Shown here one piece after another: positions 1,026-4,172 of a stretch of DNA of 14,713 bases. The stretch comes from Syntrophobacter sp. DG_60 (GTDB lineage: Bacteria; Desulfobacterota; Desulfofervidia; Desulfofervidales; DG-60). The notes below the pieces were generated by a model. It was not told the origin of the DNA, did no database searches, and worked only from the letters and a program-made list of their open reading frames with translations. The stretch is from contig LJNA01000016.1 of assembly GCA_001304365.1 (NCBI GenBank), positions 1-14,713 on the forward strand, given 5' to 3'. Every line of letters begins with the position of its first letter. Position 1 is the stretch's first letter. Both the position numbers and the translations under genes were made by a program.

Positions 1026-2180
1026 ATGATCTATCCTCTTACGGAAGAGCAACAAATGATTAAAGAAACTGCTAGGCGTTTGGCTGAGGAAAAGATAGTT
1101 CCTAGAAGGGCTGAATTAGATGAAAAAGATGAATTTCCTTGGGATATCTTAATGGATATGGCCAAGCTTGACCTATCTGGCATCTTCATTCCAGAGGCAT
1201 ATGGCGGTTTGGGGTTTGGGTGTTTTGAAAATGCATTGGCTGTTGAAGAGATAGCATGGGGTTGTGCCGGCGTAGCCACTACTTATGCAGCCAGTGGATT
1301 AGCGGCCTACCCTATTCTCTTATTTGGGAATGAAGAACAGAAAATGAAGTATTTATCAGAAATTGCCAAGGGGCATTTGGCTGCATTTGCCCTAAGTGAA
1401 TCCCAAGCAGGTAGTGATGCCAGTGCTATTCAAACTACTGCTACTGCTGATGGTGATTATTATATACTTAATGGCATAAAGCAGTGGATTACAAGTGGCG
1501 GTGAGGCAGAGATTTATACAGTAATTGCTGTCACAGATAAGCAGAAGGGAACACGTGGAGTAAGTGCATTTATTGTGAAGAAAGAAGATCCTGGCCTTCA
1601 TTTTGGAAAGAAGGAAAGAAAGATGGGGATACGTGCTTCTGCCACAAGGGGGCTTATATTTGAAGACTGCAGAATTCCTAAAGAAAGGCTTATTGGGCGG
1701 GAAGGTATGGGTTTTATTATTGCTATGAGAACTCTAGACGTCAGTCGGCCAGGTGTGGGTGCCTTAGGGGTAGGATTGGCTCAAGGGGCACTAGATGAAG
1801 CTGTGAAATACGCTAAACAGCGTTATCAGTTTGGTCAACCCATCATATCCTTTCAGGCAGTGGGGCACATGTTGGCAGAAATGGCTACCCAGATAGAAGC
1901 AGCACGTGCCTTGGTATATGCTGTTTGTCAACACATTGATGCAAAATCTAAGGATTTTTCTAAATATTCAGCTATGAGTAAACTTTTTGCCTCTGATATG
2001 GCCATGAAGGTGACCACAGATGCAGTACAGATATTGGGGGGGTATGGCTATACCAAGGATTATCCTGTAGAGAAAATGATGAGAGATGCAAAGATATTGC
2101 AAATTTATGAAGGTACCAATCAAATTCAGAGAAATATAATTGCTCAAGCATTAAACAAAGAATATGGGAAGGTTAAATGA
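1026..2180 (+). CDS. Acyl-CoA dehydrogenase (FAD flavoprotein)
   Basis: This 384-residue protein has the standard length and layout of short/medium-chain acyl-CoA dehydrogenases, which interconvert acyl-CoA and trans-2-enoyl-CoA using FAD and an ETF partner. Visible motifs are the FAD/substrate segment ALSESQAGSD (122-131), WITSG (154-158), RYQFGQPI (266-273), QILGGYGYTKDYPVEK (335-350) and the catalytic-base region IYEGTNQIQR (360-369), with Glu362 the likely base. ATG 1026 is preceded by AAGGAG at 1015-1020, overlapping the plsX stop. Its stop overlaps the etfB start by 4 nt, so it is probably translationally coupled to its electron carrier. Family assignment is firm; chain-length specificity, direction of reaction and whether it acts on CoA or ACP thioesters cannot be read from the sequence. 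Its position in a fatty-acid synthesis operon is unusual. Confidence 0.95.
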   Translation: MIYPLTEEQQMIKETARRLAEEKIVPRRAELDEKDEFPWDILMDMAKLDLSGIFIPEAYGGLGFGCFENALAVEEIAWGCAGVATTYAASGLAAYPILLFGNEEQKMKYLSEIAKGHLAAFALSESQAGSDASAIQTTATADGDYYILNGIKQWITSGGEAEIYTVIAVTDKQKGTRGVSAFIVKKEDPGLHFGKKERKMGIRASATRGLIFEDCRIPKERLIGREGMGFIIAMRTLDVSRPGVGALGVGLAQGALDEAVKYAKQRYQFGQPIISFQAVGHMLAEMATQIEAARALVYAVCQHIDAKSKDFSKYSAMSKLFASDMAMKVTTDAVQILGGYGYTKDYPVEKMMRDAKILQIYEGTNQIQRNIIAQALNKEYGKVK

Positions 2181-2971
2181 AGTTTATAGTATGTTTGAAA
2201 CAAGTGCCTGAAACAGAATCTGTAAAAATTGATGAGAAAACAGGCACATTGATGAGGACCGGTGTAAAGGGAATTACCAATCCTTATGACCTCTATGCCC
2301 TAGAGGCGGCTTTAAAGCTAAAAGAGGTATATGATGGAAAAATAATAGCAATCAGCATGGGGCCTCCTCAAGCAGAAGAAAGCCTCAGAGAAGCCATTTC
2401 TTATGGAGCAGATGAGGCCATTTTACTTAGTGACCGCCTATTTGCTGGAGCTGATACCTTAGCCACTAGCTATACCTTAGCCCAGGTAATTAGAAAAATA
2501 GGTAATTTTGATTTAGTCCTTTGTGGGAAAGAGGCTATAGATGGCAACACAGCCCAAGTAGGTCCACAATTAGCCCAAAGGTTATCACTGCCTTATGTTG
2601 CCTATGTGCGTAAAATAGGAATAGAAGAGGGGAAGATAATAGTAGAAAGAGCCTTAGAAGATGGCTCTCAGACACTAGTTTTACCTCTACCAGCTTTAGT
2701 AACCGTAGTTAAAGAAATTGGGGAGCCGAGGTTGCCTTCTATTCGCGGAAAGATGCAAGCAAAAAAAGCGCATATACCTATTTGGGAGGCAAAAGATATA
2801 TCTGCAATACCAGAAAAGATAGGACTTACAGGCTCAGCCACACGGGTAATAAAGATATTCAGTCCGCCACTACGTGAGAAGCGGGGGATTATTAGCGGAA
2901 CAGTGGAGGAGCAAGCAAAGAAGTTACTTAGCCATTTGCAAACGCAAGGGATTTTAAAGTCCGGTAACTGA
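2177..2971 (+). CDS. etfB: Electron transfer flavoprotein beta subunit
   Basis: This is the 264-residue ETF beta subunit, partner of the alpha subunit encoded 1 nt downstream. It carries the family's N-terminal MKFIVCLKQVP, a NPYDLYALEAAL segment (35-46), the nucleotide-loop region GADTLATSYTLA (91-102), GKEAIDGNTAQVGP (117-130) and the signature EPRLPSIRGKMQAKK (183-197). Known biology: in canonical ETFs this subunit binds AMP, while in electron-bifurcating ETFs the site holds a second FAD. The NPYD..ALE and DGNTAQVGP wording resembles the bifurcating group more than the mitochondrial-type group, but that is a by-eye judgement. The ATGA overlap with the dehydrogenase gene shows a coupled operon. 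Confidence 0.95.
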   Translation: MKFIVCLKQVPETESVKIDEKTGTLMRTGVKGITNPYDLYALEAALKLKEVYDGKIIAISMGPPQAEESLREAISYGADEAILLSDRLFAGADTLATSYTLAQVIRKIGNFDLVLCGKEAIDGNTAQVGPQLAQRLSLPYVAYVRKIGIEEGKIIVERALEDGSQTLVLPLPALVTVVKEIGEPRLPSIRGKMQAKKAHIPIWEAKDISAIPEKIGLTGSATRVIKIFSPPLREKRGIISGTVEEQAKKLLSHLQTQGILKSGN

Positions 2972-2972
2972 G

Positions 2973-4172
2973 ATGGATATTAAGATCGATTTAGAAAAAT
3001 GTACAGGATGCGCAGAGTGTATTGAAGTTTGCCCATTTGAGGCACTGGTACTAGTGGATGGCAAACCTCAAGTAAACGAAGCTTGTACCATATGTGGAGC
3101 ATGTGCAGAGGTGTGTGACGTTGGGGCCATCAGTCTACCAGAAATGCCTAAAATAAAAGTAGATAAAGGTAAGACAAAGGATGTTTGGGTTTGCGCAGAG
3201 CAGCGCGATGGGCAATTAGCCCAAGTAGTTTATGAACTTTTAGGAGAAGCTAGAAAATTGGCTGATGCACTACAGCAAAAAGTGATTGCCGTGTTGTTAG
3301 GATATCGGATCACTTCTCTTGCGCAAGAGCTTGTTAAATATGGAGCAGATAAGGTTTACATTATTGATCACCCCCTTTTAAAAGACTTCAATGAGTCTAT
3401 TTATAGCAGTACCCTAATTAGTTTAATAAGAAAGAGCCAACCAGAAGTGCTTTTGGCAGGAGCAACTGCCAGAGGAAGGTCCGTAATGCCACAGATATCT
3501 GCTGCCTTAGAAACAGGGCTGACTGCAGATTGTACTGGTCTGGCAATAGATGAAAAGACGGGTTTACTTTTACAAACTCGCCCAGCTTTTGGAGGGAATA
3601 TTATGGCTACTATCGCTTGTCCAGAGAAAAGACCACAAATGGCCACAGTTCGGCCCAATGTATTACCCAAGCCTCTGACTAATTCAGGACGTCAGGGTGA
3701 AATAGTAGATGTGCACTTCAATGAGGAGAACACTAAAAGCCATGTCCAAGTCATAAAATTTATCAAAGAAATAGAAGATAGTATAGATTTAGCAGAAGCA
3801 GATGTTATTGTAGCTGGTGGTCGCGGTTTGAAAGAGGCCAAAAATTTTAAATTGATTAAAGAATTGGCGAAGCTTTTAGGAGGAGCAGTAGGGGCTACAA
3901 GAGCCGTAGTAGATGCTGGCTGGGTACCTGCTAATTTCCAAGTTGGTCAGACAGGGAAAACTGTGAACCCTAAGCTCTATATTGCCTGCGGTATCTCTGG
4001 GGCCATCCAACACATAGTAGGTATGCAATCCTCAAAGGTAATTGTGGCCATTAATAATGACCCTAATGCCCCCATTTTTAATATTGCCACTTATGGTATT
4101 GTAGTGGACCTATTTGAGGTGATACCAGCTATGATTAAGGAAATAAAGAGGAGGCGAGAAATTCATTCATGA
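2973..4172 (+). CDS. etfA: ETF alpha subunit with N-terminal 2x[4Fe-4S] ferredoxin domain
   Basis: The protein has 399 residues against roughly 310-330 for a plain ETF alpha; the extra length is an N-terminal ferredoxin module. Cluster motifs are C10-x2-C13-x2-C16-x3-C20-P and C38-x2-C41-x2-C44-x3-C48 (the last followed by Asp rather than Pro). Residues about 70-250 form the ETF alpha N-domain. Residues about 275-395 form the FAD-binding domain, with GGRGLKEAKNF (282-292), GATRAVVDAGWVP (307-319), QVGQTGKTVNPKLYIACGIS (323-342) and GAIQHIVGM (343-351). The same ferredoxin-plus-ETF-alpha architecture is known from CarE of the Acetobacterium caffeyl-CoA reductase, an electron-bifurcating complex. 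It starts 1 nt after the etfB stop with no strong ribosome site, so coupling is likely. The domain fusion is seen directly; bifurcation is inferred. Confidence 0.95.
   Translation: MDIKIDLEKCTGCAECIEVCPFEALVLVDGKPQVNEACTICGACAEVCDVGAISLPEMPKIKVDKGKTKDVWVCAEQRDGQLAQVVYELLGEARKLADALQQKVIAVLLGYRITSLAQELVKYGADKVYIIDHPLLKDFNESIYSSTLISLIRKSQPEVLLAGATARGRSVMPQISAALETGLTADCTGLAIDEKTGLLLQTRPAFGGNIMATIACPEKRPQMATVRPNVLPKPLTNSGRQGEIVDVHFNEENTKSHVQVIKFIKEIEDSIDLAEADVIVAGGRGLKEAKNFKLIKELAKLLGGAVGATRAVVDAGWVPANFQVGQTGKTVNPKLYIACGISGAIQHIVGMQSSKVIVAINNDPNAPIFNIATYGIVVDLFEVIPAMIKEIKRRREIHS

What the first reader, a model, noticed from the sequence alone, without database searches (positions are those of the whole stretch)
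1026..4172. Acyl-CoA dehydrogenase/ETF module replaces fabH-fabD inside a fatty-acid synthesis operon
Seen: plsX, an acyl-CoA dehydrogenase, etfB and ferredoxin-fused etfA, then fabG-acpP-fabF, with overlapping or near-overlapping junctions. Known: between plsX and fabG one usually finds fabH and fabD, and enoyl reduction is done by FabI/K/L/V. Inference: the flavoprotein complex may act as the enoyl-thioester reductase of this organism's fatty-acid synthesis, or feed reducing power or primer acyl groups into it. That would be an unrecognised variant of type II synthesis. A plain beta-oxidation module that happened to land here is the main alternative.
Basis: partly seen in the sequence, partly recalled or inferred. 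Interest (0 to 1): 0.75.

Follow-up and report, generated by a model that had tools for sequence, protein, structure and literature searches.

The report
Likely flavoprotein enoyl reductase, fatty-acid operon
In this bacterium's fatty-acid operon, the slot where some relatives carry a standard fatty-acid reductase gene holds an acyl-CoA-dehydrogenase/ETF flavoprotein module, which probably does that reduction step and may even save some energy while doing it; this is not yet tested in the laboratory.

Summary
The gene order is real: plsX, acyl-CoA dehydrogenase (ACD), etfB, ferredoxin-fused etfA, fabG, acpP, fabF, rpiB::glyA, tightly packed. It recurs. Of 217 genomes from the phylum of Desulfacinum, 103 carry a close ACD, and in 95 of these 103 it lies in a fab operon. 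FabI is in 2 of these 103 and in 38 of the other 114. None of 33 plsX stretches fetched from FabI genomes holds the ACD; one has fabI in that slot, and a few genomes have fabK there. In five close relatives, one a single-contig Candidatus Desulfofervidus auxilii genome, searches found no FabI, FabL, FabV or FabK and no 3-hydroxyacyl-CoA dehydrogenase. Best reading: the ACD is the enoyl-thioester reductase of type II synthesis, fed by a CarDE-like, bifurcation-type ETF. Against it: 14 of 103 ACD genomes also hold FabI, FabV, FabL or a divergent FabI-like protein; 76 genomes have neither FabI nor the ACD; substrate, direction and bifurcation are untested; the window's own genome is not held. Functionally it stands in for the enoyl reductase, not FabH or FabD.

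The parts
3..1016 (+). plsX (5' end at or before the window edge)
   Evidence: PF02504, 340.5 bits
1026..2180 (+). acyl-CoA dehydrogenase (ACD), proposed enoyl-thioester reductase
   Evidence: PF02771/PF02770/PF00441; no NCBIfam equivalog cut-off reached; nearest solved chain 5ol2_C
2109..2111 (+). codon of Glu362 in the IYEGT motif, where acyl-CoA dehydrogenases of this type keep their catalytic base (role recalled)
   Evidence: sequence; Y/F-EGT kept in the clade rows examined
2177..2971 (+). etfB
   Evidence: PF01012; nearest solved chain CarD 6fah_B
2435..2449 (+). EtfB 87-91 RLFAG, matching the published NAD motif RXFXG
   Evidence: sequence; motif from PMC9232219 passages
2540..2566 (+). 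EtfB 122-130 DGNTAQVGP, matching the published bifurcating-FAD motif DGDTAQVGP except D124N
   Evidence: sequence; motif from PMC9232219 passages
2973..4172 (+). etfA with N-terminal ferredoxin domain
   Evidence: Fer4, PF01012, PF00766; nearest solved chain CarE 6fah_A, matched end to end
3000..3116 (+). two CxxCxxCxxxC motifs (Cys10, 13, 16, 20 and 38, 41, 44, 48 of EtfA) for two [4Fe-4S] clusters
   Evidence: sequence
4169..4906 (+). fabG
   Evidence: TIGR01830 331.1 bits, over cut-off
4918..5169 (+). acpP
   Evidence: PF00550
5171..6409 (+). fabF
   Evidence: TIGR03150 629.8 bits, over cut-off
6413..8113 (+). rpiB::glyA fusion, next gene of the same conserved operon
   Evidence: PF02502 and PF00464 in one frame; same gene order in relatives

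Best explanation
The ACD is the enoyl-thioester reductase (most likely enoyl-ACP reductase) of this organism's type II fatty-acid synthesis. FabF, FabG and FabZ make trans-2-enoyl-ACP; the ACD, an acyl-CoA dehydrogenase working in the reducing direction on its FAD, saturates it; electrons come from EtfB/EtfA. Because the ETF is of the CarDE/Bcd type, NADH is the likely donor, and its oxidation may be bifurcated so that ferredoxin is reduced as well. Shown by calls: gene order, its conservation, slot equivalence with fabI and fabK, near exclusion of FabI, no FabI/FabL/FabV/FabK and no 3-hydroxyacyl-CoA dehydrogenase found in five close relatives, and bifurcation-type motifs. Inferred: catalysis, direction, ACP rather than CoA as carrier, tolerance of many chain lengths, NADH as donor, bifurcation.
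For: 95 of 103 ACDs lie in a fab operon. FabI in 2 of 103 ACD genomes against 38 of 114 others. 0 of 33 plsX stretches from FabI genomes have the ACD; G062 has plsX-fabH-fabI-fabD. FabK-family genes sit in that slot in G031, G068, G051 and G070. fabD in 101 and fabZ in 99 of 103 ACD genomes, so the rest of the pathway is there. The five close relatives have no FabI (1e-30), FabL (1e-60), FabV (1e-15) or over-cut-off FabK hit; all three non-fabG SDRs of G058 and two of G143 were scanned and are not FabI or FabL; no PF02737. In eight single-contig ACD genomes none has FabI, FabL, FabV or over-cut-off FabK, though one (G034) has a divergent FabI-like protein. One supported ACD clade. EtfB motif DGDTAQVGP exact in 60 of 63 rows.
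Against: 14 of 103 ACD genomes hold FabI (2), FabV (1), over-cut-off FabL (6) or a divergent Y-x6-K FabI-like protein (6, one of them also with FabL); two more (G029, G191) have unexamined SDRs at 108-111 bits. FabK-family proteins below the cut-off are in many ACD genomes (up to 378.7 bits in G093), and four close relatives have a FabX-like protein of that family. 76 of 217 genomes have neither FabI nor the ACD, so unrecognised reductases or draft gaps exist. The module is away from fab genes in four Bacillota loci and six small genomes. Window EtfB departs from the motif (D124N, SPT to SAT), and one layout has no etf genes in the operon. The window's own genome is not held.
Confidence: 0.78

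Rival explanations
1. A fatty-acid degradation (beta-oxidation) module that happens to sit in the fab operon.
For: The protein families are those of beta-oxidation; 51 of 80 ACD genomes tested have PF02737; four Bacillota loci and six small genomes have the module unlinked.
Against: 29 of 80 ACD genomes, the five close relatives among them, have no PF02737 hit at 1e-15 (for some genomes only the best 36 first-look candidates were scored). In G118 the first look gave a single ACD candidate. Linkage to fab genes in 95 of 103 genomes is not what a chance landing would give.
Confidence: 0.06
2. The complex serves a side branch of fatty-acid synthesis (unsaturation, branched or unusual chains), and the main enoyl reduction is done by another enzyme, known or unknown.
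For: 14 of 103 ACD genomes hold FabI, FabV, FabL or a divergent FabI-like protein. Acyl-ACP oxidation inside type II synthesis has a precedent in FabX (PMC8626469 passages).
Against: Four close relatives already have a FabX-like protein (one of the four was tested against solved structures). No other known reductase was found in the close relatives. FabI or FabK takes the same slot elsewhere.
Confidence: 0.13
3. The ACD-ETF is the enoyl reductase but is not bifurcating: it simply passes electrons from NADH or another donor.
For: The window's EtfB has D124N and SAT instead of SPT; Ca. D. auxilii has D124E; the etf-less layout shows that the ACD can be kept without this ETF beside it.
Against: 60 of 63 EtfB rows keep the exact motif, RXFXG is kept in the window, and the ferredoxin domain keeps eight cysteines.
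Confidence: 0.35

Closest known systems
CarCDE, electron-bifurcating caffeyl-CoA reductase/ETF (6fah)
   Same: Same three-gene order ACD-etfB-etfA; EtfA and EtfB are the nearest solved relatives, with the same two-cluster ferredoxin domain.
   Different: CarC reduces caffeyl-CoA in anaerobic respiration (recalled; PMC6085437 passages); here the genes lie in a fatty-acid synthesis operon, and the ACD is closer to Bcd than to CarC.
Bcd-EtfAB, bifurcating butyryl-CoA dehydrogenase (5ol2)
   Same: ACD nearest solved relative (392.7 bits); same enzyme class and ETF motifs.
   Different: Bcd works on C4-CoA in butyrate fermentation (recalled); its EtfA has no ferredoxin domain (PMC9232219 passages).
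FabI, FabK, FabL, FabV enoyl-ACP reductases
   Same: Proposed reaction and operon slot.
   Different: Unrelated protein families; they need no ETF (recalled).
Acryloyl-CoA reductase AcrC with AcrA/AcrB (NCBIfam NF042972, NF042971, NF042970)
   Same: Best NCBIfam models for ACD and EtfA, second best for EtfB.
   Different: All three far below the equivalog cut-offs (450.4/640, 235.1/475, 361.6/600); short-chain fermentation enzyme (recalled).
FabX of Helicobacter pylori
   Same: A flavoprotein acting on the acyl-ACP/enoyl-ACP pair inside type II synthesis (PMC8626469 passages).
   Different: Oxidising direction, for unsaturated chains, nitronate-monooxygenase fold; a homolog is present beside the ACD in close relatives.

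Membership tests
Acyl-CoA dehydrogenase superfamily | N-terminal, middle and C-terminal ACD domains | tested here: met
   PF02771, PF02770, PF00441 over cut-offs
Acyl-CoA dehydrogenase superfamily | Catalytic glutamate in the Y/F-EGT motif | tested here: met
   YEGT in the window; ten rows (seven genomes) read FEGT, Glu kept
Bifurcating ETF (CarDE/Bcd type) | EtfB b-FAD motif DGDTAQVGP | tested here: inconclusive
   DGNTAQVGP in the window; exact in 60 of 63 rows of the clade
Bifurcating ETF (CarDE/Bcd type) | EtfB RXFXG motif | tested here: met
   RLFAG at 87-91
Bifurcating ETF (CarDE/Bcd type) | EtfB SPT motif | tested here: not met
   The window reads SAT; several relatives keep SPT
Bifurcating ETF (CarDE/Bcd type) | Measured bifurcation | not testable with these tools
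   Needs an enzyme assay
CarE-type EtfA | N-terminal ferredoxin domain with two [4Fe-4S] motifs | tested here: met
   Eight cysteines in two CxxCxxCxxxC motifs; end-to-end match to 6fah_A
Acryloyl-CoA reductase AcrC (NF042972) | Score over the equivalog cut-off | tested here: not met
   450.4 bits against 640
FabI/FabL/FabK/FabV | Membership of one of these protein families | tested here: not met
   The ACD matches only acyl-CoA dehydrogenase and related acyl-CoA oxidase models in Pfam
Enoyl-ACP reductase (by function) | Reduces enoyl-ACP at several chain lengths | not testable with these tools
   Needs an enzyme assay
Enoyl-ACP reductase (by function) | Takes the place of known enoyl reductases across genomes and in the operon | tested here: met
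   2 of 103 against 38 of 114 for FabI; slot swaps, with the exceptions told in the report
Beta-oxidation module | Accompanied by 3-hydroxyacyl-CoA dehydrogenase in the genome | tested here: not met
   No PF02737 in five close relatives; 29 of 80 ACD genomes without, 51 with

The most novel reading that the evidence does not exclude
A class of enoyl-ACP reductase built from an acyl-CoA dehydrogenase and an electron-bifurcating ETF: each elongation cycle oxidises NADH, saturates the chain and also reduces ferredoxin, so that an anaerobe recovers energy that other bacteria lose at this step. It would be widespread among sulfate-reducing and related anaerobes.
Probability: 0.48. Interest if true: 0.88.

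Novelty: new variant of a known kind. Interest (0 to 1): 0.76.

Why it matters
Enoyl reduction is the last step of each elongation cycle and an antibacterial target. A reductase from an unrelated protein family would explain why about half of the genomes sampled here (103 of 217) carry this ACD and almost never FabI, would correct annotations such as 'Cyclohex-1-ene-1-carbonyl-Co...' for the Ca. D. auxilii protein, and, if bifurcating, would mean that membrane-lipid synthesis returns reduced ferredoxin in energy-limited anaerobes. One purified complex can test it.

Tried and rejected
Whole genome of the window: not held, so relatives stand in for it. Viral contigs: no relative. Rfam on the window: no match at gathering scores. 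Literature: nine searches of the held open-access library listed no paper whose title or abstract start proposes an ACD as enoyl reductase. Passages only were read in PMC4478896, PMC6085437, PMC9232219, PMC8626469, PMC7175092, PMC2649909, PMC10102598 and PMC4916218; no paper was read in full, the rest were seen as listings. Most subscription papers are not held.

Rejected or weakened: 'replaces fabH-fabD' as function (fabH beside the ACD in the nearest relatives; fabD in 101 of 103 ACD genomes). The Fisher p of 2.3e-10 for FabI against ACD is not used as strength of evidence: on a FabF tree of 96 rows the ACD label needs 5 changes, at least 3 forced, and FabF lies in the same operon. FabI-only and 'neither' rows are interleaved there (12 changes each), which suggests that part of the 'neither' genomes are draft gaps; others stay unexplained (for example G036, G055 and G078; G041 and G195 have an unidentified Y-x6-K SDR at 115-117 bits). 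A different ACD with etfA upstream of plsX in G065, G147, G168, G189, G209 and G229 (33-34% identity, longer in the two that were read) was considered as a second recruitment and left open. Structure prediction was not run; the acyl pocket and the ACP contact were not analysed.

Limits: up to 8 ACD candidates per genome were scored, so absence in genomes rich in paralogs is not certain; G169 was missed there because its ACD is cut by a contig end. The FabI cut-off of NF005717 is not reached even by the control genomes (0 of 14 over it), so I used the gap between 237.3 and 169.5 bits; E. coli FabI scores 292.6 on that model. FabV had no positive among the 14 controls, only one genome of the set. 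FabK over its cut-off: 1 of 14 controls. One search took 80 of the 103 ACD genomes, best ACD score first. The ACD tree used 86 rows; duplicate and partial loci were dropped by hand. FabF tree rows are the fetched stretches with a nearly full FabF. FabH-like and FabZ-like neighbours of the divergent FabI-like genes were judged by eye. In one search the rpiB/glyA queries were cut wrongly (glyA out of frame); corrected. The ten rows without the YEGT pattern were checked and read FEGT.
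Full report
OBSERVATION. On the + strand the window carries plsX (to 1016), an acyl-CoA dehydrogenase (ACD, 1026-2180), etfB (2177-2971), etfA with an N-terminal ferredoxin domain (2973-4172), fabG (4169-4906), acpP (4918-5169), fabF (5171-6409) and an rpiB::glyA fusion (6413-8113), with junctions between a 4-nt overlap and an 11-nt gap.

WHAT THE PROTEINS ARE. The ACD has all three ACD domains and reaches no NCBIfam equivalog cut-off (best NF042972, acryloyl-CoA reductase, 450.4 bits against 640). 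Its nearest solved chain is in a Bcd-Etf complex (5ol2_C). EtfA and EtfB are closest to CarE and CarD of the bifurcating caffeyl-CoA reductase (6fah). The window's EtfB has RLFAG at 87-91 and DGNTAQVGP at 122-130; published bifurcating ETFs have RXFXG and DGDTAQVGP at these numbers (PMC9232219, passages). Of 63 EtfB rows of this clade (53 distinct sequences; three rows come from two genomes whose fab linkage is undetermined), 60 have the exact motif; the exceptions are the window (N) and the Ca. D. auxilii genome G058 (E, two rows). The window's SAT stands where several relatives have SPT. The catalytic glutamate motif is kept, as YEGT or FEGT.

CONSERVATION. A genome scan with the window's EtfA kept 80 loci. 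Fifteen of them (L001, L003-L006, L008, L010, L012-L019, all from deltaproteobacterial records, two of them cultured Desulfacinum strains) have the module next to plsX and/or fab genes. Of 217 genomes from the phylum of Desulfacinum hydrothermale, 103 have a close ACD (E <= 1e-125). It lies just downstream of plsX in 68. Adding two named loci and 33 fetched stretches, it lies in a fab operon in 95 of 103. Six are not linked (G178, G048, G111, G135, G084, G218) and two are cut by contig ends (G187, G063). Layouts: plsX-(fabH)-ACD-etfB-etfA-fabG-acpP-fabF with fabD elsewhere; the same with fabD after etfA (coordinates of G059, G093, G119, G079); and plsX-(fabH)-ACD-(fabD)-fabG-acpP-fabF without etf genes. 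In an ACD tree of 86 rows the 74 rows of this phylum form one supported clade (98/96) with the six unlinked rows nested inside and the four Bacillota rows outside as sister (midpoint root). The Bacillota module is not next to fab genes.

SLOT EQUIVALENCE. Of 33 plsX stretches fetched from FabI genomes, none has an ACD hit at 1e-5. In 24 of 33 fabD is in the stretch, mostly as plsX-fabH-fabD-fabG, and one (G062, L258) is plsX-fabH-fabI-fabD. In G031, G068 and G051 an over-cut-off FabK, and in G070 a FabK-family protein below the cut-off (395.6 bits), lies beside fabD and, in the first two, plsX. So FabI, FabK and the ACD can occupy one operon position.

OTHER ENOYL REDUCTASES. FabI (at least 237 bits on NF005717; next score 169.5) is in 40 of 217 genomes: 2 of 103 ACD genomes, 38 of 114 others. 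FabV: 1 of 217 (G142, an ACD genome). FabK over cut-off: 3 of 217, none an ACD genome; below-cut-off FabK-family proteins are common, also in ACD genomes (highest 378.7 bits in G093). FabL over cut-off: 8 of 217; six are ACD genomes (G037, G074, G104, G128, G149, G125), one (G169) has an ACD cut by a contig end, one (G193) has FabI. Divergent FabI-like proteins with YGYM(A/G)P(V/I)K were seen in G169, G031, G071, G125, G068, G042, G034, G079, G101, G050 and G001. Of five whose context was viewed, four (L199, L201, L202, L208) sit beside genes that look like fabG, fabZ or fabH of other clusters, judged by eye; L194 was unclear. The named locus L001's genome (G001) has both FabL and a divergent FabI-like protein. 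Together 14 of 103 ACD genomes have FabI, FabV, FabL or divergent FabI; G029 and G191 have unexamined SDRs at 108-111 bits; 87 of 103 have none of these at the thresholds used. 76 genomes have neither FabI nor the ACD.

THE CLOSEST RELATIVES. The window's ACD is 79, 78, 78 and 75% identical to those of G118, G143, G092 and G058, and 73% to that of G025. Closer unnamed proteins exist (88-98%), some from records named Deltaproteobacteria bacterium. In G058, G118, G143, G092 and G025 the SDR search gave 4, 3, 5, 3 and 2 hits. Of the 12 that are not the operon fabG, five were scanned (all three of G058, two of G143) and none is FabI or FabL; no FabI hit at 1e-30 or FabL hit at 1e-60 was found in any of the five. 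Four have one strong nitronate-monooxygenase-family hit; the one tested, L227 of G058, matches the FabX entries (291 bits; 7e1q is a FabX entry by PMC8626469) and reaches 124.7 bits on the FabK model against a cut-off of 453.1. The other three were judged by similar scores and N-termini. G025 has no such hit. fabZ is in all five, fabD in four (not G025, a draft). None has a 3-hydroxyacyl-CoA dehydrogenase hit at 1e-15; over 80 ACD genomes 51 have one and 29 do not.

SINGLE-CONTIG GENOMES. Among the ACD genomes from which stretches were fetched, G058, G048, G111, G135, G084, G199, G207 and G034 have their ACD on a contig as long as the stated genome. None has FabI at 237 bits, FabL over cut-off, FabV or FabK over cut-off; G034 has a divergent FabI-like protein and G058 the FabX-like protein. 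Draft gaps are unlikely to explain these absences.

MECHANISM (inferred). FabF, FabG and FabZ deliver trans-2-enoyl-ACP; the ACD saturates it with electrons from the ETF; the ETF takes them from NADH and may send part of them to ferredoxin. With recalled potentials (enoyl/acyl near -10 mV, NADH near -320 mV) the step has the driving force for this, which the known reductases do not conserve. Carrier, chain-length range, direction and bifurcation are not shown. In the layout without etf genes the electron donor is unknown.

ALTERNATIVES. A beta-oxidation module does not fit genomes without 3-hydroxyacyl-CoA dehydrogenase. A role in unsaturation would leave the close relatives without a found enoyl reductase and would duplicate the FabX-like protein. 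An auxiliary role beside FabL or a divergent FabI is possible where these occur.

STRENGTH OF THE STATISTICS. The FabI/ACD contrast is phylogenetically clustered: on a FabF tree of 96 rows the ACD label needs 5 changes, at least 3 forced. It rests on a handful of switches, the slot swaps, and gene content in single-contig genomes.

PRIOR WORK. Nine library searches listed no paper proposing this. The nearest seen, PMC2649909 (passages), compares fatty-acid gene clusters of an anammox bacterium with those of the deltaproteobacterium Desulfotalea psychrophila and states that FabI lies in an unrelated cluster in both; whether Desulfotalea has the ACD was not checked.

Noticed in passing
6413-8113: RpiB and GlyA are fused in one 566-aa frame; single frames of similar length follow fabF in L129 (565 aa) and L003 (569 aa), while most other relatives have two genes.
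   Followed up: partly
L227:1483-2562 and L228-L230: FabX-like proteins (nitronate-monooxygenase family; L227 tested) in genomes of presumed strict anaerobes, although FabX of Helicobacter is reported to need oxygen; the electron acceptor here would be another one.
   Followed up: partly
L141, L153, L158, L160, L164, L167: A different ACD (33-34% identical to the window's) with etfA lies just upstream of plsX on the same strand in six genomes that have neither FabI nor the close ACD; possibly a second recruitment.
   Followed up: partly
L199, L201, L202, L208: Divergent FabI-like SDRs with Y-x6-K sit beside genes that look like fabG, fabZ or fabH of a second fatty-acid-like cluster.
   Followed up: partly
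8116-8150: Inverted repeat of two 16-nt arms (94% complementary, 3-nt loop) directly after the glyA stop; may be a terminator.
   Followed up: no
11088-11321: A 77-aa HTH_17/MerR-like gene lies between pilN-like and pilO-like genes of a type IV pilus cluster (pil names from reading, not from a family scan).
   Followed up: no
8727-9357: Stretch of about 630 bases between the dCMP-deaminase-like gene and the pilM-like gene with only a doubtful 98-aa frame and no Rfam match.
   Followed up: no
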